Shown here in pieces: positions 7,427-22,688 of a stretch of 40,971 nt of DNA. The notes below the pieces were generated by a model, which saw nothing but the letters and a program-made list of their open reading frames with translations, did no database searches and had not been told where the DNA came from. The position numbers were made by a program, and so were the translations under genes. Origin of the DNA: a virus; IMG/VR virus record IMGVR_UViG_3300020455_000639, positions 1-40,971 of that record. One strand, written 5' to 3'. Numbering within the stretch: position 1 is the stretch's first letter; each line of letters starts with the position of its first letter.

Positions 7427-7434
7427 TATTTATG
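7427..7434 (-). promoter_or_regulatory. late-type promoter CATAAATA
   Basis: Minus-strand CATAAATA 35 bases upstream of the structural gene at 5473-7392, in the 81-base divergent gap with the epimerase gene. A late promoter fits a virion protein. Confidence 0.5.
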
Positions 7435-7473: not shown

Positions 7474-8280
7474 ATGATTATTGTTACTGGGACTCAAGGA
7501 TTCATTGGTAGGCACTTCCTTAATACATTAAGGGATAAGGGTGAAGATGTTATAGAGATTGATCAGCAAGGAGCATGGTATTTTAAAAGTAACTTTAATA
7601 AATGGGAAGAGGTAGACTTAATCATACATCAAGGAGCAATAACAGATACAACATGCACCATACTTAAAGCACTACAGGCTTGGAACGTAGACTATAGTAT
7701 ATGGTTATGTAAAAAAGCAATAGAACATCAGATCCCCATCCTGTATGCCTCATCAGCATCTGTCTATGGCAAGACATCTGACATGATCAATCCACTAAAC
7801 TACTATGCCTTATCTAAAGTCACTATAGACTATTGGATTCAAGATCATATAGATGAGTTTAAATTAATACAGGTGTTCAGATACTATAATGTATATGGAA
7901 CTGGTGAAGACCATAAAGGAGATCAAGCAAGTCCAGTAACTAAATTTGCAAAACAAATAAAAGAGACTGGTAAACTAAAACTCTTTGAAGGTTCTGATAA
8001 ATTCCTAAGAGACTTTGTATGTGTAGATGATGTAGTAAATCTTGTTCTTGAGAATGATAAAGAAGAATCTGGATTCTATGATCTAGGTACAAGTAACCCA
8101 GTAAGTTTTGCACAAGTTGCCCAATGGGTAGTTGATAAGTATGGTGGAGAGATAGAAGAGGTTCCATTCCCTGACCATTTAAAAAGAAAGTATCAAGAAT
8201 ATACCTGTGCTAAAAAAGAATGGGGTGATTATAAATTTAAAACTATCCCTGAATATCTTGAGGGATTACCTGCAAGTTAA
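7474..8280 (+). CDS. hldD: HldD-like ADP-heptose 6-epimerase / SDR sugar-nucleotide epimerase (268 aa)
   Basis: An extended short-chain dehydrogenase. It has the N-terminal NAD(P) motif TGTQGFIG, an HQGAITDTT segment, the SASVYG strand and the catalytic Y111-x3-K115. The mid-protein signature YYNVYGTGEDHKGDQASPV and LFEGSDKFLRDFV closely resembles HldD, which converts ADP-D-glycero-D-manno-heptose to the L-glycero form. At 268 aa it is shorter than bacterial HldD (about 310). A kinase and an adenylyltransferase of the same pathway lie at 11200-12355. It converges on and overlaps the oxygenase at 8243-8812 by 38 bases. The substrate is inferred. Confidence 0.8.
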   Translation: MIIVTGTQGFIGRHFLNTLRDKGEDVIEIDQQGAWYFKSNFNKWEEVDLIIHQGAITDTTCTILKALQAWNVDYSIWLCKKAIEHQIPILYASSASVYGKTSDMINPLNYYALSKVTIDYWIQDHIDEFKLIQVFRYYNVYGTGEDHKGDQASPVTKFAKQIKETGKLKLFEGSDKFLRDFVCVDDVVNLVLENDKEESGFYDLGTSNPVSFAQVAQWVVDKYGGEIEEVPFPDHLKRKYQEYTCAKKEWGDYKFKTIPEYLEGLPAS

Positions 8281-8812
8281 AACTTAAAGTCCGTCTCTCT
8301 GAGTCGGACTTTGTTTTGTTAACCCAATGCAACAATGAGTTAGGGAACATAAATGTTTTGCCTACCTCTTGCTCTGGTCTATGATGTTCATTGTTCCAAA
8401 TGAAATCTAAACTATGAAGATCATACCAATCAGAATCATCGGGTAACATTAGTATAGTTATCCCTGAGACATTACCTTTGTGATCATGTGGTGGAGTAAA
8501 GTCTCCTTTAAAATATCTATTAGCCCATACGTCAACATATAATTCACTAAAACTTGCAGGTTCATACTGCACATTAGCACTGTTTATATTCCAACTCTTT
8601 AAGTACTCAGGTATAACCTCTCCAATAAATGAGGTGAACCCTGAATCATTAACCTGCTCCTCAGTAAAATATACAATCTCAAAATCTCTATCTAATAAGT
8701 TTGGAAGATCCTGTTGACTTGTACTATCTACAATAGAATTTAATTCTTTTAATACCTTATCTGGACAAGCACATTCAAGTATAGATGGACCAAATGGATT
8801 AGTTAAATTCAT
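8243..8812 (-). CDS. 2OG-Fe(II) oxygenase-like protein, TIGR02466-like (189 aa)
   Basis: This double-stranded beta-helix protein resembles the TIGR02466 / 2OG-FeII_Oxy_5 group. Candidate metal ligands are in PPHDHKG (H109, H111) with a distal histidine H162 in LLHWVN. The 2-oxoglutarate-binding Arg would be in ERRTLSFN (R173 or R174). Such enzymes hydroxylate or otherwise oxidise an unactivated carbon, often on a carrier-bound or sugar substrate. It is the last gene of the minus-strand cluster and overlaps the upstream oxygenase by four bases. Its 3' end overlaps the epimerase and also encodes a hairpin (8286-8320). Confidence 0.7.
   Translation of the reverse strand: MNLTNPFGPSILECACPDKVLKELNSIVDSTSQQDLPNLLDRDFEIVYFTEEQVNDSGFTSFIGEVIPEYLKSWNINSANVQYEPASFSELYVDVWANRYFKGDFTPPHDHKGNVSGITILMLPDDSDWYDLHSLDFIWNNEHHRPEQEVGKTFMFPNSLLHWVNKTKSDSERRTLSFNLQVIPQDIQG
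8286..8320 (+). terminator. terminator for the epimerase, inside the convergent gene
   Basis: AAAGTCCG (8286-8293) pairs perfectly with CGGACTTT (8305-8312) around an 11-base loop, followed by GTTTTGTT. It starts five bases after the epimerase stop. The same bases encode part of the C-terminus of the oxygenase at 8243-8812, including its ERR motif. Confidence 0.7.
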
Positions 8813-9417
8813 GTGCCAAGATTTAAAAATGATGTAATGATATACTTATCCTCTGATAAAGGAACTGTACCTTCATGTCTAAAGAGATAGTTGCATGGGA
8901 AGATTACTAACTTACCTGCCTCTGGTTTAACTTTAACTTTATAATCCATGAAGTCAGTCTCACCACCCTCATCTACCGTATTTAAATAAAGAATGATACC
9001 AAAGGTTCTAATTACATTTGGACCTGCGGATTGATCTACATGCTCTAAAAACTTTCCTTGACCTTTATAATATATCCTAACAGAATAATCACTAAAAGAC
9101 ATTGGTTGTCCTTGTGGTGTAGGAAGTGTCTCTGAATATTGATGCCACCCATCAGTCATAACATCTGTCATGAAGTCTGATATAGGATCATCAGGACTTG
9201 GATATGCTTGTATAGTATTCTTCCTATCTAAATTTGTATGAAGACTTCCATCAGTAACTGAATCCTCACCACCATATACCTGTCCCTGTTGATGTAGGTC
9301 TTCATTATTCCAAAACCATTCTATACAACTAGCACATTGAGATGTACTTATTGCTTTTGGTTTTGTCCATATTAAATCTTTAAATGTAAGATGATCGGCA
9401 ACTATTTTAGTCATCAA
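8809..9417 (-). CDS. prolyl-4-hydroxylase-type 2OG-Fe(II) oxygenase (202 aa)
   Basis: A full-length oxygenase with the classical facial triad. H126-V-D128 is followed by IILYLNTVDEGGETDF, then the distal histidine H181 in LFRHEG and the 2-oxoglutarate-binding Lys (K191) in DKYIITSFL. This matches the prolyl 4-hydroxylase alpha-subunit-like fold. The substrate may be a protein, a peptide or a cluster product. The gene overlaps both neighbours by four bases (ATGA), a sign of coupling with the sugar cupin upstream and the other oxygenase downstream. Confidence 0.85.
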   Translation of the reverse strand: MMTKIVADHLTFKDLIWTKPKAISTSQCASCIEWFWNNEDLHQQGQVYGGEDSVTDGSLHTNLDRKNTIQAYPSPDDPISDFMTDVMTDGWHQYSETLPTPQGQPMSFSDYSVRIYYKGQGKFLEHVDQSAGPNVIRTFGIILYLNTVDEGGETDFMDYKVKVKPEAGKLVIFPCNYLFRHEGTVPLSEDKYIITSFLNLGT

Positions 9418-9770
9418 TCACCTTTAAAAATTCTGTGTGAATCCTCATCAAAATGTTGAGTAGAAAATTCAAACAACTCAGAGGTTTCTAAAGCATACAT
9501 TTGATGTCTCATCTTCCTTGGGACATGGAACTTATCTCCTGGTTCAAGTATCCTAGTATATGATTGATTTAAATCGTCAGTCTGACCATAAAATAAATGT
9601 ATTCTACCTGACTGAAGATAGAAGGTCTCATCTTTTAATAGATGATAATGCCATGAACATCTCTTACCCTTATTAAAGAATAAGATCTTACCACAATACT
9701 CTGGACAATTTACAATCCATTTCTCATTACCCCATCCCTTTTCAACGTATTTAATTTTTGAAAAAGGCAT
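9414..9770 (-). CDS. sugar-type cupin, mannose-6-phosphate isomerase-like (118 aa)
   Basis: A single-domain cupin. W13-G-N-E16 near the start, the metal site H41-Y-H43 with E48, and R88-H89-Q90 form the usual cupin ligand set. The sequence resembles cupins of sugar-phosphate isomerase/epimerase type in surface-polysaccharide clusters. It probably acts on a sugar phosphate or nucleotide sugar, but the reaction cannot be read from sequence. It overlaps the upstream HAD phosphatase by 20 bases. Confidence 0.8.
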   Translation of the reverse strand: MPFSKIKYVEKGWGNEKWIVNCPEYCGKILFFNKGKRCSWHYHLLKDETFYLQSGRIHLFYGQTDDLNQSYTRILEPGDKFHVPRKMRHQMYALETSELFEFSTQHFDEDSHRIFKGD

Positions 9771-10101
9771 GGTCGTTGACTCCTTTGTCGTCTATAAAGT
9801 GATCTGCATGTGGTTTACCCATGATTAACTCATGGTATTTACAACCCCACATTTTTAATTGTGCTTGAGTTAGTGGTTGTAATAACTCTTCCGCAACTCT
9901 CGCTGCTTCTACATGAGGTTTAGTTTTATTCCTACCCATTGCACGAGCAGTCATGTATATAATATAGTGTCCTTCATCATATAGTTTGTTCACTGCCTCT
10001 ATCCTATCCTTCTTAGGAGTAGCACCTTCATACTGGCATGTCCCACACCCCTCACCAGTTGTACAGATAGTACCATCAATATCAAAACAATATCGTGCCA
10101 T
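9751..10101 (-). CDS. HAD-family phosphatase of capsule/LPS type (116 aa)
   Basis: A small HAD phosphatase without an obvious cap domain. Motif I is D7-I-D9-G-T, motif II is the Thr in YMTARAMGR (T51), motif III is the Lys in MGKP (K96) and motif IV is D104-D105 in FIDDKG. The sequence resembles BcbF-like phosphatases found in capsule and LPS clusters. In the heptose pathway a HAD enzyme (GmhB) removes the C7 phosphate after the kinase step. This protein is smaller than GmhB (about 190 aa) but could fill that role; this is inference from context. A Cys-rich loop (GEGCGTCQYEG) is unusual. Confidence 0.8.
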   Translation of the reverse strand: MARYCFDIDGTICTTGEGCGTCQYEGATPKKDRIEAVNKLYDEGHYIIYMTARAMGRNKTKPHVEAARVAEELLQPLTQAQLKMWGCKYHELIMGKPHADHFIDDKGVNDHAFFKN

Positions 10102-10102
10102 G

Positions 10103-11203
10103 TTATTTTTTACCTAGGTATAGTGTCTTCAATGGATGTCTGGTTGTGGACATAGTTGCATGATAATAATCAATCTTTGCAAGTCCAATAGATATTCCAG
10201 CATCAGTGGATATAGGTTCAACATATAGTTTAACACCTTCTGGAAGATGTTTCAAGTACTCATAGTTTGCTACACAATTCAAAGCACACCCACCAGTTAA
10301 TACTAAATTCTTCTCACCTGTAACATCTAATGTCTTTAGTATTAAAGCAGTCATATAAGTTTCAAAATCTTTTTGTACTCTGTACGCAAGATTAGCAAAC
10401 TTTTGTTTTATATCCTTACTATCTATATCAATAAACTCATCTGTGTCGTTCGGGTATTTCACATAATTATAGGGTATAAAATTTATACCAAACCTACTAC
10501 GATAAAATAATTCTGTAACAAGAGTACCATCATCATGAAGAAAAGATTTTATGTTAGGATCTTCCTTACCATATGAAGACAGACCCATTAATTTACCAGA
10601 ACCAAAGTCTCCAAACCCAAAGTAATTAGATAGTGATTGATATACCATACCAATACCAAAACACAATGGTATCTTATCTGCTTCAAGAAATATTGGAGTA
10701 AAATTAGTAGATTGTCTTTTAAATATAGTTGGATAAGAACAGTTGTAAATACTCTCTACTTCTTGTACATCATCCCTATCTTCAAGAGGATTACCCATAC
10801 CATCTACAACAAGTACACCAGCTCTTTGGAATCCTGAATTATAAAAACCACATGCAGCATGATAAACATGATGTTGAGCATAAGATTCATAATGTACCAA
10901 TTGTTTATGAATTTTTGATGCTCCAATACTACTAGTATATTTTTTAGATACTTGCATACTAAAAGTTTCTGCATCCATTGTGAACTTCGGTTTATTATGA
11001 GGTTCAAATAAACCTGCTATCTGTACCTTATTATCTACACTAGTGATATCCATATTAAATAGAGCTAAAGATGGATAACTATCATGTTTCACTCTACTAA
11101 ATCTCTCCTCTTCAGCGAACCAATCAATCTCACCATTGGTTATCTGACATACAGAAGAGTCATGTGTTAAATTAACACCTAAATGAGGTTTACTTTTTTT
11201 CAT
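10103..11203 (-). CDS. carbamoyltransferase lacking the C-terminal domain (366 aa)
   Basis: The protein contains the complete Kae1-like N-domain of the NodU/TobZ family: LGVNLTHDSS at the start, HHxxHA with H112 and H115, VVDGMGN (D134), MGLSSYG, and TGGCALNCVANYEY near residue 310. It ends at YLGKK, exactly where the full-length paralogue at 15894-17732 passes into its linker (YYGPEY near residue 393). The YrdC-like C-domain with GPRALGNRSIL is absent and no remnant is visible, because the HAD gene starts one base later. It may work with another subunit, have changed function or be inactive. It overlaps the kinase gene by four bases. Confidence 0.82.
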   Translation of the reverse strand: MKKSKPHLGVNLTHDSSVCQITNGEIDWFAEEERFSRVKHDSYPSLALFNMDITSVDNKVQIAGLFEPHNKPKFTMDAETFSMQVSKKYTSSIGASKIHKQLVHYESYAQHHVYHAACGFYNSGFQRAGVLVVDGMGNPLEDRDDVQEVESIYNCSYPTIFKRQSTNFTPIFLEADKIPLCFGIGMVYQSLSNYFGFGDFGSGKLMGLSSYGKEDPNIKSFLHDDGTLVTELFYRSRFGINFIPYNYVKYPNDTDEFIDIDSKDIKQKFANLAYRVQKDFETYMTALILKTLDVTGEKNLVLTGGCALNCVANYEYLKHLPEGVKLYVEPISTDAGISIGLAKIDYYHATMSTTRHPLKTLYLGKK

Positions 11204-11967
11204 AATGAATTAATATCATTAGGTGTTAATGTATAACATCCATAGTTCTGCACTGCAATAGCAGATGCTTTGTTAGCAATTTTAATTGATGCCTCCATGT
11301 CATGTTCTTTTAAAAACTCAGCACATAATGCTGCAAGGAATGTATCACCAGCACCTACCACATCAAATACATTTACATTCTCACTAGGATATAACTCATC
11401 CATATACCATGCACCCTGACCTCCAGCAGTTGTAATTAAATTCTGCTTCGCAGGGTGTACTCTTAAAGTAGATGCTTCTCTCTGATTTATTTTAAAGATA
11501 ACATTCTGTGCTGAGAATAATTCCTTCTTCTTAGTATCAATAAAGACTGGACCTGTAAAATTCTGACAAAAGGTTATGAGATCTTCTATCTTAACAAACC
11601 CTTTATCATAATCAGATATAACTATGGCATCAAACTGTGATGTTAAGAATGCCATCTTAACTTCAGCAGGTTTTATTGGATCAACCTGATCATCATAATC
11701 AACCCTAACCAACTGTTGCTTACTAGCAATGTCAACTATTCTTTTCTTCTTTATTAATTTTCTATTAGTAATATGAGTTACATGAACTCCAAATGCTTGT
11801 AGATTCCTCTTAACATTCTCAGACATACCAAGAGCAGTAAGAGTCTCTTCATGTTTTACAACAGGAACTGGTGCTTCTGGACTTATTCTATCTACACTAC
11901 CAAAGATATAACTATCTTCACATGTCTCGCCTATCAATAATACTTTGTACTGTTTTTGTTGTTGCAT
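11200..11967 (-). CDS. heptose-7-phosphate kinase, HldE N-domain-like PfkB kinase (255 aa)
   Basis: A ribokinase/PfkB-family sugar kinase. RISPEAPVPVV near residue 27 is typical of the HldE kinase domain, and DVVGAGDTF near residue 202 holds the catalytic Asp (D208). HldE phosphorylates heptose 7-phosphate to the 1,7-bisphosphate. The usual GGAANV substrate/nucleotide motif is replaced by ALGMSENV (about 45-52), and the protein is shorter than the ~315-residue HldE domain. I start it at the ATG at 11967; the 11985 start would be TTG. It overlaps the adenylyltransferase gene by 50 bases. Confidence 0.8.
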   Translation of the reverse strand: MQQQKQYKVLLIGETCEDSYIFGSVDRISPEAPVPVVKHEETLTALGMSENVKRNLQAFGVHVTHITNRKLIKKKRIVDIASKQQLVRVDYDDQVDPIKPAEVKMAFLTSQFDAIVISDYDKGFVKIEDLITFCQNFTGPVFIDTKKKELFSAQNVIFKINQREASTLRVHPAKQNLITTAGGQGAWYMDELYPSENVNVFDVVGAGDTFLAALCAEFLKEHDMEASIKIANKASAIAVQNYGCYTLTPNDINSL

Positions 11968-12355
11968 AATCACCAACCCTATCAAAAAATACTAACTTAG
12001 CAGCAGACATAGATCCTATCACAGTCTTATTCTTCCAATCAGATCCAACAACCATAACATGAGGTTTTATAAACTCAACCATTGCTGCTAACTGTGAATC
12101 ATTATCAAAGACTGCAACTCTATGCACTGACTTTAAATTTTCAAGAAAGAATTTCCTATCTTCCATATTATATATGGGTCTAGAATCACCTTTCATCTCA
12201 GCAACCCTTCGGTCACTATCAATACCAACATATACTCTGTCACCTAATGACTTAGCATAGTTAAGTAGTTCCAGATGCCCACGATGAAGTAAGTCAAATG
12301 TTCCGTTGACAAATACTTTAGTAGATGGATGATAAAATTGTCTACCAATGCTCAT
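11918..12355 (-). CDS. heptose-1-phosphate adenylyltransferase-like (145 aa)
   Basis: A cytidylyltransferase-like protein with N17-G-T-F20 and the H24-R-G-H27 nucleotide-binding motif, then DRKFFLENLKSV and VVGSDWKNK. The C-terminal DYATTKTVQSI takes the place of ISSTTEK-type motifs. It matches the C-terminal domain of HldE (RfaE2), which joins AMP to heptose 1-phosphate. Here it is a separate gene upstream of the kinase, the opposite order to the bacterial fusion. With the epimerase at 7474 and the HAD protein it completes most of an ADP-heptose route. Confidence 0.82.
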   Translation of the reverse strand: MSIGRQFYHPSTKVFVNGTFDLLHRGHLELLNYAKSLGDRVYVGIDSDRRVAEMKGDSRPIYNMEDRKFFLENLKSVHRVAVFDNDSQLAAMVEFIKPHVMVVGSDWKNKTVIGSMSAAKLVFFDRVGDYATTKTVQSIIDRRDM

Positions 12356-12978
12356 GAGTATACATTCAAGGTGTCTTGTTGTGATAACATAAAACTAAAG
12401 ATCCATAAGACACGATGCTTATCACCAATGATTTCATCTACCCCATGCTCTGCTTGAGATACAATATACATTAGTAGATCAGTCTCTTCAGTCTCCCAAG
12501 GTTCACCATCAATATATGTAACACCACCAGAGTCTGGTTTCTGTGTTATAAAATTACAATGAACTGTATTGGTTCCTTCAAACCAAGGTGGATCTGTGTG
12601 AGGATGTATGGTTCCTCCTTTAAAACTTATCTCTGTAATTATACCATCTTTTCCTACAGGAGAACACCCAAAGTCTTTGAACCCAAATGTATTTACAAGA
12701 CGATTCTGTATATCATAACAAAGTTTTGGATACTCAAAATCAGGAGATGATGATACTACACATCTAGCATGATCCATATTGGTAGGATCAATAAGAGGAT
12801 TCTGATAATTAACTAGTGGGTTAGCAAACCTAGTAGTTAATTTTGTATCTTTAAGACCCTTAGAATCCATCCTAGGGTCCATAAACCAGTCTTTATGATA
12901 ATTACTCTCAGTCCACTGAGTTAATTCTTTTGCTTCCTCTGGTGTAAGGAAGTCTTTATATGCTCTTACTTTATCCAT
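12352..12978 (-). CDS. 2OG-Fe(II) oxygenase (208 aa)
   Basis: Carries the facial triad H127-T-D129 in HPHTDPPW and a distal histidine H178 in QAEHGVD. R189 in KHRVLWIFSF is the likely 2-oxoglutarate anchor. The beta strands between (VHCNFITQKPDSGGVTYIDG) are as expected for a double-stranded beta-helix. It is only weakly similar to the two oxygenases at 8243-9417. It overlaps the upstream halogenase by eight bases and the adenylyltransferase by four. The substrate is unknown; the position between the halogenases and the sugar genes suggests tailoring of the same product. Confidence 0.78.
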   Translation of the reverse strand: MDKVRAYKDFLTPEEAKELTQWTESNYHKDWFMDPRMDSKGLKDTKLTTRFANPLVNYQNPLIDPTNMDHARCVVSSSPDFEYPKLCYDIQNRLVNTFGFKDFGCSPVGKDGIITEISFKGGTIHPHTDPPWFEGTNTVHCNFITQKPDSGGVTYIDGEPWETEETDLLMYIVSQAEHGVDEIIGDKHRVLWIFSFMLSQQDTLNVYS

Positions 12979-14479
12979 TGTAAGGTATATTCAGACTCTC
13001 ACCTTTATGTATTTTAATAAGACACTGATCTATAAACTGAGCATGAAGAATAGATTTAACATGCTTCTCTTGTTCATTACAAAAAAAGTCTCTAACTAAT
13101 ACATCAGCATCAAAAGGTGGAACTTTTTTATTTTGTTTAGGTTCAATCTCATCCTTATTTAACATCTGACATAAGAACATAGACCAGTTATCTCCAGCAA
13201 ACATATAGTTTCCATTTGATGGAAGTCTAACTGGATTATTTAATACCTCATTCTCATAATACAATAATTTCTCACTTGGTTTATAGGTATCCTGAACATA
13301 CTTCCAGAACTTACCAGTCTTCCTTTTATTATATGCATAATGCATGTTAACAAAATCAATACAACTTTCATAGAATGAAGTCATTTGATGATTATATCCT
13401 TTTACTATTAAATCATCATAAAAACTACCACGACATGCCTCTACAAATTCCATTGCACCAGAAGATATTAATGCAATACCAGTGCTCTCTATAGGTTCAA
13501 TAAATCCAGCAGACAATCCAATAGTTACAACATTATCAACCCAAAAATTCTTATGATAATATGGAGTCCAATCTAATACTCTTAACTCATCTGGAGTTAC
13601 TCTACCATCCCAATACTTAGAGAAGGATTGCTTTACATCATCAACATCACTAACAGATTTATTAAAAACTAATCCAGATCCTATTCTTTCTTGAGTTGGT
13701 GTCTTCCATATCCAACCATCTTCTACAGCAGCACATGTTGTATATGGATTCTGTTCTATTGCTTTATTTCTGTAGTCAAAACGACCAGCGACTGCTGTAT
13801 CACAAAACAATCTACCTGTACAATCTACACTGTCAGGTTCAGGTGCTATCAATCTCTTAAATCCAGTACAATCAATGAATATATCTGATTGTATCTCCTC
13901 ACCAGTATCTATAGTAATATGATTAAGACCACCACGTTCATTCCTATCAACAGATATTACTTCATGTTCAACTAATTGTATTTTTCCTAAAAGTTTTCCT
14001 CTGACCCAACGAACTAACTTACCACAGTCAATATGATATGCATAAGTTCCTATGTTCTCTGGGTCAACTTTATTCTCTGTGACACCAGGATGATATAAAG
14101 CACAAGCATGAGTAAAATAATCATACTCCTTGAACATAGTCCATAGAGATAACAAATCAGTATCCAGGTTATTAAACATTGGAAACGCAAAAGGATGCCA
14201 TAAATTAACACCTTCTTGTTGCCAATCCTTAAATAAGATTCCACATTTAAATGTAGCATCTATCTCAGGTATCCACTCTTCAGGTTTAAACCCACAGTCA
14301 TACATGAACTGTTTAAAATTTAAGATAGTTGCTTCACCTACTCCAATAGGATCAGAAACTTTTTTATCTACTAACAATATCTCAGTTTGAGAAGGCATCT
14401 TCTCAACCAAATAAGCAGCGGTCAACCATCCAGCAGTACCACCACCAACAATAACAACTCTATTAACAGGTTTAATCAT
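12971..14479 (-). CDS. tryptophan-halogenase-type flavoenzyme 1 (502 aa)
   Basis: A full-length FAD-dependent halogenase of the Trp_halogenase family. It has GGGTAGW (residues 12-18) for FAD, the catalytic lysine K78 in ATFKCGILF (K79 in PrnA), and E331-S332 in GFIEPIESTG (E346-S347 in PrnA). The family motif WxWxIP is present as W256-I-W258-K-T-P261, with Thr for Ile. Such enzymes make HOCl from FADH2, O2 and chloride and chlorinate an aromatic ring. No flavin reductase is encoded nearby, so a host reductase would be needed. It overlaps its paralogue at 14476 by four bases. Confidence 0.9.
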   Translation of the reverse strand: MIKPVNRVVIVGGGTAGWLTAAYLVEKMPSQTEILLVDKKVSDPIGVGEATILNFKQFMYDCGFKPEEWIPEIDATFKCGILFKDWQQEGVNLWHPFAFPMFNNLDTDLLSLWTMFKEYDYFTHACALYHPGVTENKVDPENIGTYAYHIDCGKLVRWVRGKLLGKIQLVEHEVISVDRNERGGLNHITIDTGEEIQSDIFIDCTGFKRLIAPEPDSVDCTGRLFCDTAVAGRFDYRNKAIEQNPYTTCAAVEDGWIWKTPTQERIGSGLVFNKSVSDVDDVKQSFSKYWDGRVTPDELRVLDWTPYYHKNFWVDNVVTIGLSAGFIEPIESTGIALISSGAMEFVEACRGSFYDDLIVKGYNHQMTSFYESCIDFVNMHYAYNKRKTGKFWKYVQDTYKPSEKLLYYENEVLNNPVRLPSNGNYMFAGDNWSMFLCQMLNKDEIEPKQNKKVPPFDADVLVRDFFCNEQEKHVKSILHAQFIDQCLIKIHKGESLNIPYNG

Positions 14480-15894
14480 AATGCCACCATCTTGTTGTAT
14501 TTTAACACAAAATCTTTATGAAGTATATAATCACCAGACACACTAAAGAAAGAAGTCGGTGGTAAAGAAGATTCTTTATTACAAATATTATCAGGTATCA
14601 TTTGACATAAAAATAAACTCCAACTCTCTCCTGTGAATATATCTATATCATCACAACCACAGGGTAATTCATATGGATTATTAGATGATTCATACTCAAA
14701 GAATTCTAATGCTTTTGTCTTAGTATAAACCTTCTGAACATACTCCCAGAATTTACCAGTCTTCCGTTTGTTATATGCATAATGCATGTTAACAAAGTCA
14801 ACACACTGCTCAAAATATCCTTGCATCTTCAAGTTATATCTCCATACATTAAGATCATCATATCTATTACCAGCAATCGAATGTGCTAATGAAGTAAGAC
14901 CAGAAGTTATTAAAGCAATGCCACTACTCTCTAAAGGTTCTATAAATCCAGCAGACAATCCAATACACACTACATTATCATGCCAAAAAGTCTTACGATA
15001 ATGTGGTGTCCAATCAAGAACCTTTAAGTCATCTACTCTTCCTTCCCAATAATTATTAAAGTATTCCTTCGCTTCCTCAGTATCAGTTACTGATCTATTA
15101 TATACTAACCCAGTTCCTAATCTAGATTGAGTTGGTATCTTCCATATCCATCCATGATCTACAGCATGACACTCAGTATATGGTTGCATCTCAGAATCAG
15201 GATCAATATAATTAACATGACCTGCAATTGCTGAATCACAAAACAATCTATCCCCACAATATATACCCTCATATTTTAAACCAAGAAGTCTTTTAAACCC
15301 TGTACAATCAATAAACAAATCAGACTCAATCTCCTCACCAGATTCTAATTTGATAGAAGATATACCTCCACGTTCATTCCTATTAACATCTATAACTCCC
15401 TGCGGAACAAAAGTAATCTCATTTAATATCTTAGACTTAATAAATTTAACTAACTTATCACAATCAATATGATATGCAAATGATCCAATAGCACTTTGAC
15501 TAATTTTATTCTCAGTAACAGCAGGATCATAAAAAGCACAAGCATGCTTGTGGAAATCAAATTCTTTATAGTTTGTCCATAGGTTTAACTCGTCAGGTAA
15601 ATGACCAAAAGGATGCCATAGATTCTTACCCTCCTGCTGCCAATCTTTAAATAAGATTCCAGTTTTAAAGGTAGCATCTATAGCAGTAAACCACTGTTCA
15701 ACAGAGAATCCACAATCATACATGAACTGTTTAAAACTGATGATAGTTGCTTCACCCACACTAACAGTCTCAGATACTGTCTTATCAACAACAATAATCT
15801 CACACTGTTTTCTCTTTCTCTTTAAAAGATATGCAGCACTAAGCCAACCAGCAGTACCACCACCAACTATAACTATCCTATTAACAGGACGCAT
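14476..15894 (-). CDS. tryptophan-halogenase-type flavoenzyme 2 (472 aa)
   Basis: A paralogue of the neighbouring halogenase. It carries GGGTAGWLSAAYL (residues 11-23), the catalytic K77 in ATFKTGILF, a perfect family motif W249-I-W251-K-I-P254, and E322-S323 in GFIEPLESSG. The two proteins share long identical stretches (NMHYAYNKRKTGKFW), so they arose by duplication. It is 30 residues shorter, mainly in the C-terminal part and a loop near residue 100, which may change the substrate pocket. Translation is coupled to the carbamoyltransferase upstream by a TAATG junction. Confidence 0.9.
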   Translation of the reverse strand: MRPVNRIVIVGGGTAGWLSAAYLLKRKRKQCEIIVVDKTVSETVSVGEATIISFKQFMYDCGFSVEQWFTAIDATFKTGILFKDWQQEGKNLWHPFGHLPDELNLWTNYKEFDFHKHACAFYDPAVTENKISQSAIGSFAYHIDCDKLVKFIKSKILNEITFVPQGVIDVNRNERGGISSIKLESGEEIESDLFIDCTGFKRLLGLKYEGIYCGDRLFCDSAIAGHVNYIDPDSEMQPYTECHAVDHGWIWKIPTQSRLGTGLVYNRSVTDTEEAKEYFNNYWEGRVDDLKVLDWTPHYRKTFWHDNVVCIGLSAGFIEPLESSGIALITSGLTSLAHSIAGNRYDDLNVWRYNLKMQGYFEQCVDFVNMHYAYNKRKTGKFWEYVQKVYTKTKALEFFEYESSNNPYELPCGCDDIDIFTGESWSLFLCQMIPDNICNKESSLPPTSFFSVSGDYILHKDFVLKYNKMVAL

Positions 15895-17732
15895 TAGATT
15901 TTTTTAATTTCAGTTTGATCTTCTTGTTCGTTCTCTACATGAATTAGAATAGAATATTCAGGAAGATATAAGTACTCAATATCACTATTAGCAAGAGTCC
16001 GTAACGCATCATCGAGTGTTTCAACCAGAGGTTCTCCACCCAAATTAAAGGAAGTATTAAAGATGATAGGGCAACCAGTCTGTTCAAAGAATTCCTTGAT
16101 GAGTTTGTAGTAGTTCTCATTCTGTTCTTCTGTTACTGTTTGTATTCTACATGTGCCATCAACATGAATGATAGAAGGAATTTTTTCTTCAATACCTTCT
16201 TGACAGTTAACAGCATACATCATGAACGGAGTCTCATCCATACCACGAAGATCAAACCACTCATGTACATGTTCTTTTAAAATAGAACCTGCAAATGGTC
16301 TGAAGTATTCTCTATGCTTAACAGCATTAACATGATCTTTTCCATTTGGATCACGAGGATCATATAGAATAGAACGATTACCAAGTGCTCTTGGACCTGC
16401 TTCCGATCTACCTTGGAACAGTGCAACAATATTTTTATTAGTAATTAATTCAACAACATCTTTATCGGTTGCATTATTAACTATTGAAGTTGCATTATAC
16501 TTCTCAGCAATCTTACTAATTGTATGTTCATCGTACATATATTCAGGTCCATAGTAAAGGTCATTAATTTTGTTATGTATTCTAGTATCATTAGTAATTC
16601 TATGATACGCTAGATAAGCAGCACCAACAGCAGTACCAGCATCATTACTTACAGGTTCAACAAAGACATTGATATCCTCATCTTTTAATTGATCAAGATA
16701 CCAATAGTTTGCAACACAATTTAATCCATACCCACCAGATAATACTACATTATTATTACCACTCATAGCAACTGCTTTACGAATCAAATCAAGAACCATC
16801 TGTTGGGACTCAGTTTGAATAGCGTATGCCATATCTCTACGATTTTCTAGTAGAGTTAATTGTTCATGCTCAACATTTGATGGAGTTTTAAGTACTTCAT
16901 ATCTACCTTCATTAACTACAGCACCATTAGGATACGTAGGAACGATTACATTACGATCAGCAGTAATCCATTCTCCACCAGAACCATCAGTATAAATCTT
17001 TGGAATTAATTTGTTTGGTTTTCCATATGGGAATAGTCCCATAGTTTTACCTGCTTCAATAGGAGGCCATCCACAGTACTGTGTGACTGCTTCATATGCT
17101 TTAACTATACCAGCACTCTCATCTAAAATAAACTCATGGGTTCCCTCTTCAAATTCATCTTCAGACTTACTATCCATCTCAGGAATCAAAGCGGAACCCC
17201 ATGGTCCTCTACCTCCTTGATGTTTATAAATTGTTTGAATATCCGCTGGATACTCACAAGTAAATAATGATTCCAACTCAAATGTCATCTCAGTATCATT
17301 ACCAATATTCAAAGGAATAAAAGTACCAGCACCATCTACTACAACTGCTACTGCTGATTCAAATCCAGAACGATAGAATGCACATGCAGCATGAAGTTTA
17401 TGATGTGTCCTACTTAAATCAATAACCTGTGGATGTTGATGGGGATCTACTTTCTGATCAATTAATCCCAACTTCCTAGCAAGTCCAGTATAGATATCCT
17501 CACCAGAAAAATCTACTGTCCCTGCCTGTGATAATGATTGTGTATGTGCTATTACAAGATAATCAATCTTGTCAGTATAATCTAGGATCTTAACCATAGA
17601 AGCATAAGGTCCACCATCATACTTATTTCTAGACAATCTCTCTTCTTCTAAAGAAAATACAAGTTCACCATCTTTTAATAGGCAAACACCAGAGTTATGA
17701 CCTCTAGCAATTGCTGCAATCCATTGTGTCAT
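15894..17732 (-). CDS. carbamoyltransferase, full length, NodU/TobZ family (612 aa)
   Basis: The most canonical of the three carbamoyltransferases. IARGHNSGVCLL starts the Kae1-like domain. HHxxHA (H111, H114), VVDGAG (D133), MGLFPYG near residue 231 and LSGGYGLNCVANY near 331 follow. The YrdC-like C-domain carries GRSEAGPRALGNRSIL (441-456) and YFRPFAGSIL, which bind the carbamoyl-adenylate. Length is normal for the family. It probably carbamoylates a hydroxyl on the product of the neighbouring halogenases or on the sugar. It is one base from the glycosyltransferase upstream and overlaps halogenase 2 by one base. Confidence 0.93.
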   Translation of the reverse strand: MTQWIAAIARGHNSGVCLLKDGELVFSLEEERLSRNKYDGGPYASMVKILDYTDKIDYLVIAHTQSLSQAGTVDFSGEDIYTGLARKLGLIDQKVDPHQHPQVIDLSRTHHKLHAACAFYRSGFESAVAVVVDGAGTFIPLNIGNDTEMTFELESLFTCEYPADIQTIYKHQGGRGPWGSALIPEMDSKSEDEFEEGTHEFILDESAGIVKAYEAVTQYCGWPPIEAGKTMGLFPYGKPNKLIPKIYTDGSGGEWITADRNVIVPTYPNGAVVNEGRYEVLKTPSNVEHEQLTLLENRRDMAYAIQTESQQMVLDLIRKAVAMSGNNNVVLSGGYGLNCVANYWYLDQLKDEDINVFVEPVSNDAGTAVGAAYLAYHRITNDTRIHNKINDLYYGPEYMYDEHTISKIAEKYNATSIVNNATDKDVVELITNKNIVALFQGRSEAGPRALGNRSILYDPRDPNGKDHVNAVKHREYFRPFAGSILKEHVHEWFDLRGMDETPFMMYAVNCQEGIEEKIPSIIHVDGTCRIQTVTEEQNENYYKLIKEFFEQTGCPIIFNTSFNLGGEPLVETLDDALRTLANSDIEYLYLPEYSILIHVENEQEDQTEIKKI

Positions 17733-17733
17733 A

Positions 17734-18861
17734 TCACTTAAGTTTTTGTAGAATGTTTTTTACATCTGGATTTGATGTCTCAATTTGACCAAAACCCTTA
17801 GTCTTAGAAGCATCAAACTTTATCTTAGGTTTATTACTTTGAGGTAATGATTGTTGTTGTGGTTTATCACAACAAGCATTAGCATCATCTTTGTTTTTTA
17901 TTTGGAAGTTACCAGTATACGCTGCTGGTTTACCCATTCTCTTCTTAACAGAATCAATAACTGCCTTCTTATGTGCCTCAGTCATTTCCATACACTCATC
18001 ATTAGCACGATCTACTACCTCATCAATACAAACTCTAATTGGTGAATAAAGTCTTCCATTATCCTTACCAACATCAACAATATCCATGTTCTTATTGTCA
18101 GGATAAGAGATGTTAACTGGGAATGTAGATCCACAAACCATAGTAGTGGTTGTATCTAATGCCATAGCAATGTGCTGACCCATACTATCACAACCTAAAA
18201 AATGATCTGCAGCATGTATGATACCTGCCCATAATCTCATGTCTTGTATTTCTGGACGAGCAACCATATGCTTCTGCTCATCCTTCTCTAGTGGGAAGTG
18301 AATCTCACTCATTATAATAACAGCATAATCTTTCTTGAGTTTATTAATAATCTCAACAACATTATTAAGACCAAAACTTCTAGAAGTAGCGTCAACAATA
18401 AAGTCCTGCCCTATAGTCTCAACTGACCTACCAAAAGGTTGAACAACTAATAGTTTATCCTTACCAGTTCCTGCTTTAACTTCTTCTACCGCAGTAAATC
18501 CAGCACAGATCTCATTCTTAGTTAAAACAATCTGTGGGATAGGTAGTTCTCTTGGTTCATCTAACTCATTAATAATAATATCAAATGCCTGTGCTAGACT
18601 TGCCTTCTGATTAAAATAATGCCACTCTCTATATGGTTCTGGAGTCACCAGATCCATGTGTATTAATTTCTCTTGGAATATATTCTTGTGCCAATTATCA
18701 TATGCCTTTGAATATAATGTAGGATGACCTTTAAGGAAGTCAGTTCCACCTTCACACATAATAACAAAGTCGTCGTGAGTTTCTGCGTATTTTTCAAGCG
18801 CAGGTATGGAGCAAATTATACGACCCGCTCCACCATTAAGAAAGAATGCTTTAGATCTCAT
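17734..18861 (-). CDS. GT9/heptosyltransferase-like glycosyltransferase (375 aa)
   Basis: A GT-B-type protein. The first domain has LNGGAGRIICSIPALEKY (residues 9-26), like the N-terminal glycine motif of ADP-heptose LPS heptosyltransferases. The second has HAADHFLGCDSMGQHIAMAL (216-235), with DSMGQH where GT9 enzymes have D(S/T)GPxH. GT9 enzymes transfer L-glycero-D-manno-heptose from ADP, which fits the kinase, adenylyltransferase and epimerase nearby. A Lys/Gln-rich C-terminal tail of about 80 residues, including an ACCDKPQQQ stretch, is not part of the usual fold. A TCTAAATA box lies 20 bases upstream. Confidence 0.72.
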   Translation of the reverse strand: MRSKAFFLNGGAGRIICSIPALEKYAETHDDFVIMCEGGTDFLKGHPTLYSKAYDNWHKNIFQEKLIHMDLVTPEPYREWHYFNQKASLAQAFDIIINELDEPRELPIPQIVLTKNEICAGFTAVEEVKAGTGKDKLLVVQPFGRSVETIGQDFIVDATSRSFGLNNVVEIINKLKKDYAVIIMSEIHFPLEKDEQKHMVARPEIQDMRLWAGIIHAADHFLGCDSMGQHIAMALDTTTTMVCGSTFPVNISYPDNKNMDIVDVGKDNGRLYSPIRVCIDEVVDRANDECMEMTEAHKKAVIDSVKKRMGKPAAYTGNFQIKNKDDANACCDKPQQQSLPQSNKPKIKFDASKTKGFGQIETSNPDVKNILQKLK

Positions 18862-18880
18862 AGTAATAACATCAACAACT

Positions 18881-18888
18881 TATTTAGA
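18881..18888 (-). promoter_or_regulatory. late-type promoter TCTAAATA within the cluster
   Basis: Minus-strand TCTAAATA, two bases from T4 TATAAATA, in the 31-base gap before the glycosyltransferase gene. This gap is one of the few breaks in the otherwise overlapping cluster and could start a second transcript. Confidence 0.35.
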
Positions 18889-18892
18889 CTGT

Positions 18893-19651
18893 TTAAAAGA
18901 ACATGATCTGGGTTAACCGATCATAATTATGATACAATTCAGGTTCTAATATTGCACCATGAACTTGGTTTGCATCATAAACCATACATCTATTATAGCG
19001 TATAGGTACGATTGCTTGCAACTTTGGATGGTTTATTGAACCATCAGAATTGGGTGGGACAACACTATAAAGTCCTGTACCTGGAATTTTTTCCTCACCA
19101 TACTCTTCTGGCGTATTTAGATAGACTAAAGAAGCCCATTTATTATACATTCCATCTATATGACATACAGTATACCAAGGTCTCTGTGATCTGACAACCT
19201 CCTCATGATTTGTCACGTTAACAACAAACCTCATATTAGACCACTTATCATAATGATGTTCCTTATCAAATCTTATATGCCATGCTTCACTATTACATAT
19301 CTGTTCAAAGACAGGAGACATCTTATCTTCCATCTCCTTCATAGTCTCTTCTGTTTCATCCCAAACTCTTCTACCTATTGCACCTGCCATCCTTGCATCA
19401 TCAGGTCTAAGACCATGTTTGTCAGTCCACACATTAGTCTTATCTCTCTTACTTTCATCCTTAAATTCTTTTAATTGACTACGAGTATACTCTCTTAACT
19501 CATCTGGATTCCTATAAAAATCATCAATAATAAAATATGTTTTCTCAACTTTATCTAAGTTAAAATCTACCTTACCATCACTAACAGAATGCCATGTGAT
19601 ATCTGTTGTAGTCTTTACTTGTACTTTAAGATCAGGATTAATTTCAAACAT
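18893..19651 (-). CDS. DUF6445-like 2OG-Fe(II)-type oxygenase (252 aa)
   Basis: The protein has candidate ligands H164-I-D166 in VCHIDGMYNKWASLVYLN, a distal H231 in ANQVHGAI and R245 in YDRLTQIMFF. Together these form the oxygenase triad plus co-substrate Arg. The layout, with GTGLY near residue 191, recalls DUF6445, a family often found beside tryptophan halogenases in bacteria. I start it at the ATG at 19651, which overlaps the upstream stop (TAATG). Its role is probably a partner or tailoring enzyme for the halogenated product; the reaction is unknown. Confidence 0.72.
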   Translation of the reverse strand: MFEINPDLKVQVKTTTDITWHSVSDGKVDFNLDKVEKTYFIIDDFYRNPDELREYTRSQLKEFKDESKRDKTNVWTDKHGLRPDDARMAGAIGRRVWDETEETMKEMEDKMSPVFEQICNSEAWHIRFDKEHHYDKWSNMRFVVNVTNHEEVVRSQRPWYTVCHIDGMYNKWASLVYLNTPEEYGEEKIPGTGLYSVVPPNSDGSINHPKLQAIVPIRYNRCMVYDANQVHGAILEPELYHNYDRLTQIMFF

Positions 19652-20190
19652 TATAATAAAGGAATACAACCATAATTTTCTGTAATATAATAATCCAACT
19701 CTTGATAATTATAATCTGTCATCACATCAAATCCTATAGTAATTCTTTTACCTTTATACTCTCTTAAATTTTTTACTCTGTGACTATGATAACCTGGTCC
19801 AAAGTATATATTACCAACTTGATTATCAATTGTCCACTTCTCAAATTCTGTTTCAGTATCCTGAGGTTCTATAGCAATGTAACCATGATAAGCAGAGTCA
19901 TGATTGTGCCACTGCAATACACCATCCCAATCTTGATAGTTCAACCATGACTGTATCCACAATCTCTCATCAGGTAACTGACTTCTAATAAGACCTCTTA
20001 AAGTCTCAAAGATTTTATACATGTGTATAGACGGAGAAGACACCCCAAAGATATTATACTTTGTGTAACCAAACGTGCTATCTGACACGCCTAGTTCCCG
20101 TATAATATCATGGGATGTCTTTAGTTCTTTTATGATCTCCTGTTGATGTTCTTTTATGTATTCAAAATTGTATAATATGTAATCAGACAT
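19651..20190 (-). CDS. 2OG-Fe(II) oxygenase-superfamily protein (179 aa)
   Basis: The protein shows W94-H95-N-H97-D98, then strand HGYIAIEPQD, then GPGYHSHRV (H135 or H137) and KRITIGFDV (R149). This is the order of metal ligands and co-substrate Arg in phage and cyanobacterial 2OG-type oxygenases. The proximal motif is H-x-H-D rather than a plain H-x-D, so the exact ligands are uncertain. I start it at the ATG at 20190; the upstream GTG at 20199 is an alternative. It is the first gene of the minus-strand metabolic cluster and lies just downstream of an extended -10 promoter. Confidence 0.68.
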   Translation of the reverse strand: MSDYILYNFEYIKEHQQEIIKELKTSHDIIRELGVSDSTFGYTKYNIFGVSSPSIHMYKIFETLRGLIRSQLPDERLWIQSWLNYQDWDGVLQWHNHDSAYHGYIAIEPQDTETEFEKWTIDNQVGNIYFGPGYHSHRVKNLREYKGKRITIGFDVMTDYNYQELDYYITENYGCIPLL

Positions 20191-20212
20191 CAGTCTCACA
20201 CAGTTACATTAT

Positions 20213-20981: not shown

Positions 20982-20989
20982 TATTTATA
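20982..20989 (-). promoter_or_regulatory. T4-type late promoter TATAAATA
   Basis: A perfect TATAAATA on the minus strand, 41 bases before the ATG of the structural gene at 20225-20941 and just after a terminator for the gene upstream. Confidence 0.7.
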
Positions 20990-21001: not shown

Positions 21002-21030
21002 AAAAAAGGTGCGTTCTACCGCACCCCTTT
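21002..21030 (-). terminator. intrinsic terminator after the Cys-rich gene triplet
   Basis: GGTGCG (21008-21013) pairs with CGCACC (21020-21025) around a six-base loop, with six T following on the minus strand. It lies 21 bases after the stop of the last Cys-rich gene. Confidence 0.75.
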
Positions 21031-21050: not shown

Positions 21051-21842
21051 TTAAAGGTAACTAACTTTAACTAGTCCTGGACCTCCAGTTGATCCTCTAC
21101 CACAGCAACCACTACCACCACAATACGTAGTCATAGCACCCTGTCCACCGTGACCATAAGGTGATGTCCAGCAACCACATCTCATCCAACACTCATGTAT
21201 GTTTTGGTTTATTGAAGTACCAATAAATGGTGCTGACGTTGGTGAAGCACCAAAACACTGACAATGGCAATGAGTCATGTGTATAAAGAATGCTCCTCTA
21301 TGGTTACCCATCGTGAAGTCTGATCCATGAGCAGTAGGACTTACACAACATCTACCCCAAGTAGAGTGACATGCTTCGTTCCAACTACCATTAGCACAAC
21401 CTCCAGTACCACCCAAGGCACAGAAGTTACTTAAGTTATATCCATTCGCATAGGAAGCACAACCGTGACAACCATCACAACTATTTTGTTCACATGGATA
21501 TGTACCAGCAGCACAAATAGTATATTGACAACCAGGAGCAGTTTGAATCATCTTAGATGCATAATACCCACCTTGAGCACCTGCATAGTGTTGACATCTA
21601 CCAGTACTACACATCCCGTGTCCATTACCACCAGCACCCCACATCTCGAAGAATACTCTTCTTACGCCCGTTGGGACTGTCCAAAGACAACAGCATCCAG
21701 TAGAACACCTGTTAGGTGAACCCCAGTAATACCTTACGTTCCAAGTATCAAACACACCAGAAGCAACAGCAGCCTGTGGGACTGAACCGTCAACTAACTG
21801 AGTAGCACCGTCAACTTTTTTATAGCTTGCGTATGAGGCCAT
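21051..21842 (-). CDS. Cys-rich, Gly-rich putative fibre adhesin 1 (263 aa)
   Basis: One of three tandem paralogues. It has about 26 cysteines (10%) and many glycines. The N-terminus ASYASYKKVDG is shared with the other two. GCCCLWTVPTGV, the glycine stretch GAGGNGHG, CDGCHGCASY, CWMRCGCW and YCGGSGCCGRG follow. The Gly-rich core resembles glycine-rich domains of phage tail-fibre tips. The cysteines may form disulfides once the virion is outside the cell or bind metal; this is inference. Closest to paralogue 3, with which it shares exact DNA blocks of 29 and 32 bases. A GATAAATA late-type box precedes it, and a terminator follows. Confidence 0.7.
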   Translation of the reverse strand: MASYASYKKVDGATQLVDGSVPQAAVASGVFDTWNVRYYWGSPNRCSTGCCCLWTVPTGVRRVFFEMWGAGGNGHGMCSTGRCQHYAGAQGGYYASKMIQTAPGCQYTICAAGTYPCEQNSCDGCHGCASYANGYNLSNFCALGGTGGCANGSWNEACHSTWGRCCVSPTAHGSDFTMGNHRGAFFIHMTHCHCQCFGASPTSAPFIGTSINQNIHECWMRCGCWTSPYGHGGQGAMTTYCGGSGCCGRGSTGGPGLVKVSYL

Positions 21843-21864
21843 GTTTAAAAACTTCCTGTAACTT

Positions 21865-21872
21865 TATTTATC
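21865..21872 (-). promoter_or_regulatory. late-type promoter GATAAATA
   Basis: Minus-strand GATAAATA 23 bases before the ATG of the Cys-rich gene at 21051-21842. It overlaps the stop codon of the Cys-rich gene at 21871-22671. Confidence 0.45.
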
Positions 21873-22671: not shown

Positions 22672-22688
22672 TTTTTTATGTAAGTCCT

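What the first reader, a model, noticed from the sequence alone, without database searches (positions are those of the whole stretch)
7474..20190. Phage-borne biosynthetic cluster: halogenases, carbamoyltransferases, oxygenases and heptose genes
Fourteen minus-strand genes (8243-20190) are packed with 1-50 base overlaps and only one gap of about 30 bases. A plus-strand epimerase adjoins them. The set is two Trp-halogenase-type enzymes, two carbamoyltransferases, a GT9-like glycosyltransferase, heptose kinase and adenylyltransferase, HAD phosphatase, sugar cupin and five 2OG-Fe(II)-type proteins. The families are known singly, and polysaccharide gene clusters are known in cyanophages. A cluster that could build, halogenate, oxidise and carbamoylate a glycosylated product looks like a secondary-metabolite pathway inside a lytic phage. 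The product and its role (surface change, toxin, anti-competitor, virion decoration) are inference.
Basis: partly seen in the sequence, partly recalled or inferred. Interest (0 to 1): 0.88.

Follow-up and report, generated by a model that had tools for sequence, protein, structure and literature searches.

The report
Cyanophage tail-linked heptose and halogenase operon
A marine cyanobacterial virus carries, in what looks like one late operon behind its tail-adhesin genes, a sugar pathway plus halogenating, hydroxylating and carbamoylating enzymes, more likely used to decorate its own tail proteins than to make a free secondary metabolite.

Summary
In detail: 14 tightly packed minus-strand genes (8243-20199) and a convergent epimerase (7474-8280), with two intact-looking flavin halogenases, one full and one half carbamoyltransferase, ADP-heptose-type kinase, adenylyltransferase and epimerase, a GT9-fold protein and five 2OG-type proteins. 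The secondary-metabolite reading is not supported, and it is not new: Viruses 2021, 13:63 proposed it for the homologous cluster of phage S-SSM6a. In 98 related loci the core order GT9-like / carbamoyltransferase / adenylyltransferase / kinase / HAD / cupin / epimerase is conserved (46 of 48 complete) and follows Gly-rich tail-adhesin genes (91 of 92). Halogenases are optional (32 of 60) and sit in one slot. The T4-type late-promoter motif precedes the adjoining tail-chaperone gene in 74 of 91 loci but no carbamoyltransferase, halogenase or heptose gene. The GT9-like protein folds like heptosyltransferases, with the adhesin heptosyltransferase TibC as top match; the Gly-rich protein folds like a cyanophage fibre. 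Best reading: a late tail operon that makes ADP-heptose and decorates tail adhesins with carbamoylated heptose and optional halogen and hydroxyl groups. Substrate and product are inferred, not shown. If right, native substrates of tail-linked cyanophage halogenases, including VirX1, become testable by virion mass spectrometry.

The parts
20982..20988 (-). ATAAATA (in TATAAATA) late-promoter core, 41 bases upstream of the tail-chaperone gene; probable start of the operon, just downstream of a terminator-like hairpin (21008-21025)
   Evidence: motif upstream of the homologous gene in 74 of 91 relatives; motif identity from PMC2984593
20225..20941 (-). tail assembly chaperone-like protein (TAPC), first gene of the presumed transcription unit
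   Evidence: Pfam PF16778 E 1e-8, PHROG tail fibre assembly
19651..20199 (-). 2OG-Fe(II)-type oxygenase (OG_D)
   Evidence: PF13759 E 0.001, below cut-off; phrog_2696, phrog_81
18893..19669 (-). DUF6445 protein with a 2OG-oxygenase-like HxD...H...R pattern (by eye)
   Evidence: PF20043 E 1e-6; sequence
17734..18861 (-). GT9L: heptosyltransferase-fold (GT9/TibC-like) protein, phrog_8954
   Evidence: AF2 pLDDT 85.5; Foldseek TibC 4rap E 1e-9, 3tov, WaaF, WaaC; conserved in 98 loci
15894..17732 (-). full-length O-carbamoyltransferase (both domains)
   Evidence: PF02543+PF16861; PDB relatives 7xb6, GdmN, NovN, TobZ; next gene after GT9L in 92 of 92 loci
14476..15894 (-). flavin-dependent halogenase, tandem copy absent from close relative L019
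   Evidence: PF04820 E 2e-92; PrnA 2e-60, VirX1 1e-48; motifs GGGTAG, FK (K79 site), WIWKIP, EPLESS
12971..14479 (-). flavin-dependent halogenase, orthologue of L019 (89% identical)
   Evidence: PF04820 E 7e-88; motifs GGGTAG, FK, WIWKTP, EPIEST; dN/dS 0.21
12352..12978 (-). 2OG-Fe(II)-type protein by motif only (HTD...EHG...R)
   Evidence: no Pfam, PHROG or NCBIfam hit; motif by eye
11918..12355 (-). heptose-1-phosphate adenylyltransferase-like (HldE domain II)
   Evidence: TIGR02199 E 3e-31, below cut-off
11200..11985 (-). heptose-7-phosphate kinase-like (HldE domain I, short; start probably at the internal ATG near 11967)
   Evidence: TIGR02198 E 6e-45, below cut-off; RISPEAPVPV and GAGD motifs
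10103..11203 (-). half carbamoyltransferase: Kae1-like N-terminal domain only
   Evidence: PF02543 only; same half form in S-SSM7, Sf-FS3 and others
9751..10101 (-). small HAD phosphatase (EcbF/BcbF-like; named 'phosphoheptose isomerase' in phage records)
   Evidence: TIGR01689 E 2e-5; phrog_1238
9414..9770 (-). cupin
   Evidence: PF07883 E 1e-6
8809..9417 (-). 2OG-Fe(II) oxygenase (OG_B)
   Evidence: PF13640 E 2e-11
8243..8812 (-). 2OG-Fe(II) oxygenase (OG_A)
   Evidence: PF13759 E 6e-10
7474..8280 (+). HldD-like ADP-heptose 6-epimerase, convergent, overlaps OG_A by 38 bases
   Evidence: TIGR02197 E 2e-59, below cut-off; PDB 1eq2 HldD 2e-39
21051..23483 (-). three Gly/Cys-rich tail adhesin-like paralogues (21051-21842, 21871-22671, 22689-23483); proposed targets
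   Evidence: PF21722; AF2 model best match cyanophage Pam3 fibre 7ypx E 1e-7
23554..27711 (-). tail fibre protein
   Evidence: phrog_9851 E 7e-254
5473..7392 (-). tail fibre-like protein on the far side of the cassette, with its own ATAAATA at 7427-7433
   Evidence: phrog_11338

Best explanation
A virion-decoration operon. Late in infection the phage transcribes, from a T4-type late promoter ahead of a tail-fibre chaperone gene, a run of enzymes that (i) turn a host heptose-7-phosphate into ADP-L-glycero-D-manno-heptose (kinase, HAD phosphatase, adenylyltransferase, HldD-like epimerase), (ii) attach heptose to the neighbouring Gly/Cys-rich tail adhesins through a GT9/TibC-fold transferase, probably on residues prepared by 2OG hydroxylases, (iii) carbamoylate the sugar (full plus half carbamoyltransferase), and (iv) in some lineages, this one included, halogenate aromatic groups of the same target with flavin halogenases. 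Shown: gene content and families, conserved order and tail linkage, late-promoter placement, predicted folds, purifying selection. Inferred: that the tail protein is the acceptor, the order of steps, the halogenation target, and the benefit (receptor binding, virion stability or escape from competitors).
For: Gene order conserved in cultured phages S-SSM7, Sf-FS3, P-SSM2, S-CAM1 and S-CAM3 and in metagenomic contigs: next gene is a carbamoyltransferase in 92/92, tail genes immediately upstream in 91/92, core order 46/48. Late-promoter motif upstream of TAPC in 74/91 and of GT9L in 25/97; 0 of 93 full CT, 52 HAL, 60 NT, 57 KIN, 46 HAD, 44 cupin. In the window all 12 motifs are on the coding strand, 8 of 12 lie 10-60 bases before genes (p 8e-9), and none lies between 7434 and 20981. 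GT9L fold: TibC, which heptosylates the adhesins TibA/AIDA-I, then other heptosyltransferases. Gly-rich protein fold: Pam3 fibre. Best matches of three sugar enzymes are the ADP-heptose ones. Marine Synechococcus LPS has no heptose (PMC4515613), against a simple host-LPS role. dN/dS 0.06-0.33 for cluster and flanking genes against L019/L015. VirX1's locus in Syn10 has the same layout: tail fibre, tail-fibre assembly x2, two halogenases, oxygenase array, with a late motif ahead.
Against: No modified virion protein is shown. GT9L lacks recognisable GT9 sequence outside the donor motif and has an invariant Arg where WaaC/F/U keep GD (by eye), so it may not use the usual base. TibC-specific parts are missing. 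TM-scores of about 0.5 cannot separate protein from LPS heptosyltransferases. No GmhA in nine records. L017 has GT9L and CT but no adenylyltransferase anywhere in 185 kb. HAL/NT/KIN are 89-94% identical between L039 and L041 while their adhesins are 43% identical, so accessory enzymes are not tuned to one adhesin sequence. Some cyanophage halogenases (P-SSM2, Syn1, S-PM2) are not in tail operons. Tail adjacency may partly be inherited position in a hypervariable host-recognition region (PMC7029224).
Confidence: 0.55

Rival explanations
1. Host-surface modification: the enzymes add a carbamoylated, halogenated heptose-containing group to host LPS or capsule to block competing phages or grazers.
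For: ADP-heptose is classically an LPS precursor; other cyanophages carry glycosyltransferase-rich LPS-type clusters away from tail genes (S-SM2, S-T4); PMC7029224 and PMC7824862 propose surface change for such genes.
Against: Marine Synechococcus LPS lacks heptose; only one transferase-like gene and no ligase, flippase or polymerase in the cluster; likely late expression with tail genes is too late to exclude superinfection.
Confidence: 0.17
2. Secondary metabolite: a diffusible halogenated, carbamoylated amino-sugar compound (toxin, antibiotic or signal), as the first reader and Viruses 2021 13:63 suggest.
For: Halogenases, carbamoyltransferases and oxygenases recur in antibiotic clusters; published prediction for S-SSM6a.
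Against: No assembly line, ligase or exporter; minimal clusters (P-SSM2, S-CAM1, S-CAM3) have no halogenase; constant tail-gene linkage and late promoter unexplained.
Confidence: 0.13
3. Phage DNA modification: the carbamoyltransferases, 2OG oxygenases and glycosyltransferase hypermodify bases.
For: A viral carbamoyltransferase converts 5hmC to 5-carbamoyloxymethylcytosine (PMC8670742); 2OG enzymes and glycosyltransferases hypermodify DNA in other phages (general knowledge).
Against: No dCMP hydroxymethylase/thymidylate-synthase gene seen in the cluster; expected late timing is after replication; heptose and halogenase genes do not fit.
Confidence: 0.05
4. No single function: a hypervariable island of separately useful or genome-filling genes ('stuffer DNA', raised for cyanophage LPS genes in PMC3037559).
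For: Accessory genes come and go; apparently broken halogenase copies exist elsewhere in S-SSM7 and G002; PMC3037559.
Against: Core order conserved in 46/48; dN/dS 0.06-0.33; intact halogenase motifs.
Confidence: 0.1

Closest known systems
S-SSM6a/S-SSM7 'second gene cluster' of jumbo cyanophages (Viruses 2021, 13:63, PMC7824862)
   Same: Homologous locus: GT9L, full and half carbamoyltransferase, halogenase, adenylyltransferase, kinase, HAD, cupin, 2OG, convergent epimerase, in nearly the same order beside the same Gly-rich tail genes
   Different: Window has a tandem halogenase pair, more 2OG proteins and no methylase, and ends at a tail-fibre/glutaredoxin flank as in P-SSM2 instead of neck gp13; the published reading (capsule decoration or secondary metabolite) differs from mine
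P-SSM2 / S-CAM1 / S-CAM3 minimal cassette (T4-GC 302-308)
   Same: Same seven-gene core and flanks
   Different: No halogenase, half carbamoyltransferase or inserted 2OG genes inside the cassette
VirX1, flavin halogenase of cyanophage Syn10 (PDB 6qgm)
   Same: Same halogenase superfamily (E 1e-48), tandem copies, tail-fibre-linked, followed by oxygenases, late motif upstream
   Different: Different halogenase clade and no heptose cassette: no adenylyltransferase in Syn10
TibC / AAH bacterial autotransporter heptosyltransferases
   Same: Predicted fold of GT9L; adhesin gene next door; heptose donor pathway
   Different: No N-terminal beta-barrel, no CxxC pair for an iron finger, about 13% identity; donor likely the L,D form because an epimerase is present

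Membership tests
ADP-heptose biosynthesis | HldE domain I kinase, domain II adenylyltransferase and HldD epimerase as best-matching families | tested here: met
   TIGR02198, TIGR02199 and TIGR02197 are the best NCBIfam hits, all below the equivalog cut-offs; PDB 1eq2 HldD
ADP-heptose biosynthesis | GmhA sedoheptulose-7-phosphate isomerase encoded | tested here: not met
   PF13580 0 of 9 related phage records, 5 of them complete cultured genomes; the host would have to supply this step
Flavin-dependent tryptophan-type halogenase | GxGxxG, catalytic Lys (K79 of PrnA), WxWxIP, Glu (E346 of PrnA) | tested here: met
   alignment to PrnA; both window copies (WIWKTP in one)
Flavin-dependent tryptophan-type halogenase | Halogenating activity and identity of substrate | not testable with these tools
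   needs enzyme assay
O-carbamoyltransferase (TobZ/GdmN type) | Kae1-like N-domain plus YrdC-like C-domain | tested here: met
   15894-17732 has PF02543 and PF16861
O-carbamoyltransferase (TobZ/GdmN type), second copy | C-terminal domain present | tested here: not met
   10103-11203 matches PF02543 only
Glycosyltransferase family 9 | GT-B fold and C-terminal donor motif (G-x-D-S...H) | tested here: met
   AF2/Foldseek; motif aligned to WaaF and WaaC at weak scores
Glycosyltransferase family 9 | Catalytic Asp in N-terminal GxGD loop | tested here: inconclusive
   GT9L has invariant GGAGR; WaaC/F/U invariant GD; position matched by eye only
TibC/BAHT autotransporter heptosyltransferase | N-terminal beta-barrel and four-Cys iron finger (PMC4358343) | tested here: not met
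   Model starts directly with a strand-helix pair of the catalytic fold; no CxxC
Secondary-metabolite gene cluster | Scaffold-forming enzyme (NRPS, PKS, terpene or peptide synthase) or transporter | tested here: not met
   None among the annotated genes of the cassette
T4-type late transcription unit | NATAAATA upstream of the first gene, none inside | tested here: met
   motif from PMC2984593; transcription itself not tested
DNA 5hmC carbamoyltransferase system | Co-occurrence with thymidylate synthase/dCMP hydroxymethylase | tested here: inconclusive
   No such gene among the annotated genes of the cassette, but the window is only a fragment of the genome and I did not search for one elsewhere

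The most novel reading that the evidence does not exclude
A phage post-translationally builds 'chemically armoured' receptor-binding tail proteins: hydroxylated, heptosylated, carbamoylated and halogenated, with interchangeable accessory enzymes letting lineages vary tail chemistry without changing tail sequence. This would be the native role of VirX1-type viral halogenases.
Probability: 0.3. Interest if true: 0.88.

Novelty: new member of a known kind. Interest (0 to 1): 0.62.

Why it matters
The role of cyanophage halogenases has been speculative (PMC2984593 cites host antibiotic protection), the review PMC8407142 lists no natural product for VirX1, and the LPS-type genes in T4-like cyanophages were left as 'functional or stuffer DNA' (PMC3037559). 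Placing both in a probable late tail operon gives one cheap decisive test: mass spectrometry of virions from already cultured phages that differ in halogenase content. If positive, it would add enzymatic halogenation to the chemistry of virus particles and give tail-sequence-independent variation in host recognition.

Tried and rejected
Single-protein scan with GT9L found only 5 loci, so an alignment was used. A link between halogenase presence and three rather than one Gly-rich gene looked strong by counts but rests on only 5 changes on the tree and cannot be tested. Composition of Gly-rich proteins (Trp 3.0% without, 3.4-3.7% with halogenase) is too confounded to use. GT9L homologues in bacterial genomes: only 8 hits, all in marine MAG contigs, which I take as misbinned phage contigs (not verified). 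'Phosphoheptose isomerase' annotation of the HAD gene rejected: its hits are HAD phosphatases and no SIS domain is found. Sigma-70 promoter scan gave no signal above shuffles (83 against 81). One paper search was rejected for a sign in the term.
Full report
WHAT IS THERE. The window is a 40,971-base IMG/VR virus fragment. Its last 96 bases match psbD of Prochlorococcus phages and its structural genes resemble Kyanoviridae such as S-SSM7, so it is a T4-like cyanophage. The 14 minus-strand genes 8243-20199 and the epimerase 7474-8280 are real ORFs packed as described. The cassette is A+T-richer (G+C 0.34-0.36) than the adjoining tail genes (0.39-0.42).

ENZYMES. Halogenases: both score as Trp_halogenase with E below 1e-87; PrnA is the nearest solved relative of the 14476-15894 copy (2e-60) and viral VirX1 matches at 1e-48. 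The catalytic Lys, WxWxIP-like motif and Glu are present in both copies. Carbamoyltransferases: 15894-17732 has both domains; 10103-11203 has only the N-terminal Kae1-like domain, a half form that recurs in S-SSM7, Sf-FS3 and many contigs. In TobZ the missing domain makes carbamoyl-adenylate (my knowledge), so the half enzyme may borrow it from the full one (inference). Sugar genes: best NCBIfam matches are heptose-7-P kinase, heptose-1-P adenylyltransferase and ADP-heptose 6-epimerase, all under the curated cut-offs; the nearest solved epimerase is E. coli HldD. The small HAD is nearest EcbF/BcbF. No GmhA isomerase is found in nine related records, five of them complete phages, so the first step would have to come from the host. 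Five proteins carry 2OG-oxygenase-like motifs, two of them with Pfam support above cut-off.

COMPARATIVE ANATOMY. The same locus occurs in cultured S-SSM7, Sf-FS3, P-SSM2, S-CAM1 and S-CAM3. I fetched metagenomic relatives by GT9L and by halogenase, built profiles for each gene and annotated every locus. Of 98 distinct loci with GT9L, the next gene is a carbamoyltransferase in 92 of 92, and a tail gene (Gly-rich protein or tail chaperone) lies within five genes upstream in 91 of 92 with enough sequence. In 48 loci complete from GT9L to HAD, 46 keep the order GT9L-CT-NT-KIN-(CT)-HAD-CUP-EPI as far as they run; two have cupin and HAD inverted. Halogenases of complete cassettes occur in the CT-NT slot: none in 28 loci, one in 20, two in 12; never between KIN and HAD (0 of 48). 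So the core is an ADP-heptose/transferase/carbamoyl cassette, and halogenases, 2OG proteins and the half carbamoyltransferase are accessories. The loci were found through GT9L, so they are relatives by construction; the informative part is which neighbours stay and which vary.

TRANSCRIPTION. T4-like cyanophages use the late promoter NATAAATA (PMC2984593). In the window the motif is not enriched overall (12 against 16 expected by shuffling), but all 12 copies are on the coding strand and 8 of 12 lie 10-60 bases before a gene (4.6% of positions, p 8e-9). One lies 41 bases before the tail chaperone (20982), right after a terminator-like hairpin; the next lies at 7427, before the tail-fibre gene beyond the cassette. 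None lies inside the cassette. Across relatives it precedes the chaperone gene in 74 of 91 and GT9L in 25 of 97, but 0 of 93 full carbamoyltransferases, 0 of 52 halogenases, 0 of 60 adenylyltransferases, 0 of 57 kinases, 0 of 46 HAD and 0 of 44 cupins. Stray internal copies exist (0.06 per kb against 0.45 per kb in tail genes). The simplest reading is one late operon led by a tail gene. RNA evidence was not available to me.

STRUCTURE. GT9L (AF2, pLDDT 85.5) matches heptosyltransferases: TibC (E 1e-9), Veillonella GT9 3tov, WaaF, WaaC. TibC heptosylates adhesins (PMC4358343). TM-scores near 0.5 do not discriminate protein from LPS transferases, and TibC's beta-barrel and iron finger are absent, so GT9L is 'like', not 'a', TibC. 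Its glycine loop ends in an invariant Arg where WaaC/F/U have Asp (by eye), which may mean altered catalysis. The Gly/Cys-rich neighbour (pLDDT 77.6) best matches the cyanophage Pam3 fibre (E 1e-7) and then Bxb1 tail-tip chains.

EVOLUTION. dN/dS against L019 and L015 is 0.06-0.33 for cassette and flanking genes, so these genes are under constraint; the 14476-15894 halogenase copy has no close enough orthologue to test. The two window halogenases are sisters; L019 has only one, so this is a tandem duplication in this lineage or a loss in L019. Slot halogenases as a whole fall into several clades needing at least 8 changes on supported branches, some of which may be contig-end artefacts; halogenase presence changes about 5 times on the GT9L tree. 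L039 and L041 share 89-94% identical HAL/NT/KIN but only 43% identical adhesins, so the enzyme half recombines apart from the adhesin half.

WIDER PATTERN. Syn10, source of VirX1, has tail fibre, two tail-fibre-assembly proteins, two halogenases and an array of 2OG/JmjC genes, with a late motif just ahead and none inside the halogenase pair. P-RSM6 and S-WAM1 are alike. But halogenases of P-SSM2, Syn1 and S-PM2 lie near nucleotide-metabolism, talC or hli genes, so tail linkage is common, not universal.

INTERPRETATION. The anatomy fits virion decoration better than a free metabolite: one transferase-fold gene, an activated-sugar pathway, carbamoylation, optional aromatic chemistry, and permanent coupling to adhesin genes with apparent late expression. 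Host LPS is a weaker target because marine Synechococcus LPS has no heptose (PMC4515613). DNA modification is possible for carbamoyltransferases in general (PMC8670742) but does not fit the heptose and halogenase genes or the timing.

PRIOR ART. [quoted passage not shown] cyanophage LPS genes were discussed in 2010 (PMC3037559); the region is known as a host-recognition cluster (PMC7029224). What I did not find described in the papers I could search is the late-operon evidence, the conserved halogenase slot, the heptosyltransferase fold of GT9L and the shared tail context of VirX1.

Noticed in passing
window 2968-4482 and 4521-5198: A third, full-length Nol-like carbamoyltransferase next to a bilin reductase (best NCBIfam hit dihydrobiliverdin:ferredoxin oxidoreductase); the pair is conserved together in several relatives (L036, L100, L101, L105, L106, L114, L163).
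   Followed up: partly
L039 and L041: Halogenase, adenylyltransferase and kinase 89-94% identical while the adjoining adhesin, chaperone and DUF6445 are 37-43% identical: recombination between adhesin half and enzyme half.
   Followed up: partly
S-SSM7 record 168252-169244; G002 record 21419-22453: Second halogenase copies that match only as separate fragments, apparently decayed.
   Followed up: no
L017 (185 kb contig): GT9L and carbamoyltransferase present beside tail genes but no heptose adenylyltransferase anywhere in the record.
   Followed up: partly
L027-L030, L061-L070: Metagenomic viral contigs with up to five halogenases interleaved with 2OG oxygenases, without the heptose cassette.
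   Followed up: no
window 10103-11203 and relatives: Recurrent stand-alone Kae1-like half carbamoyltransferase (315-387 aa) paired with a full one in the same operon; mechanism unknown.
   Followed up: no
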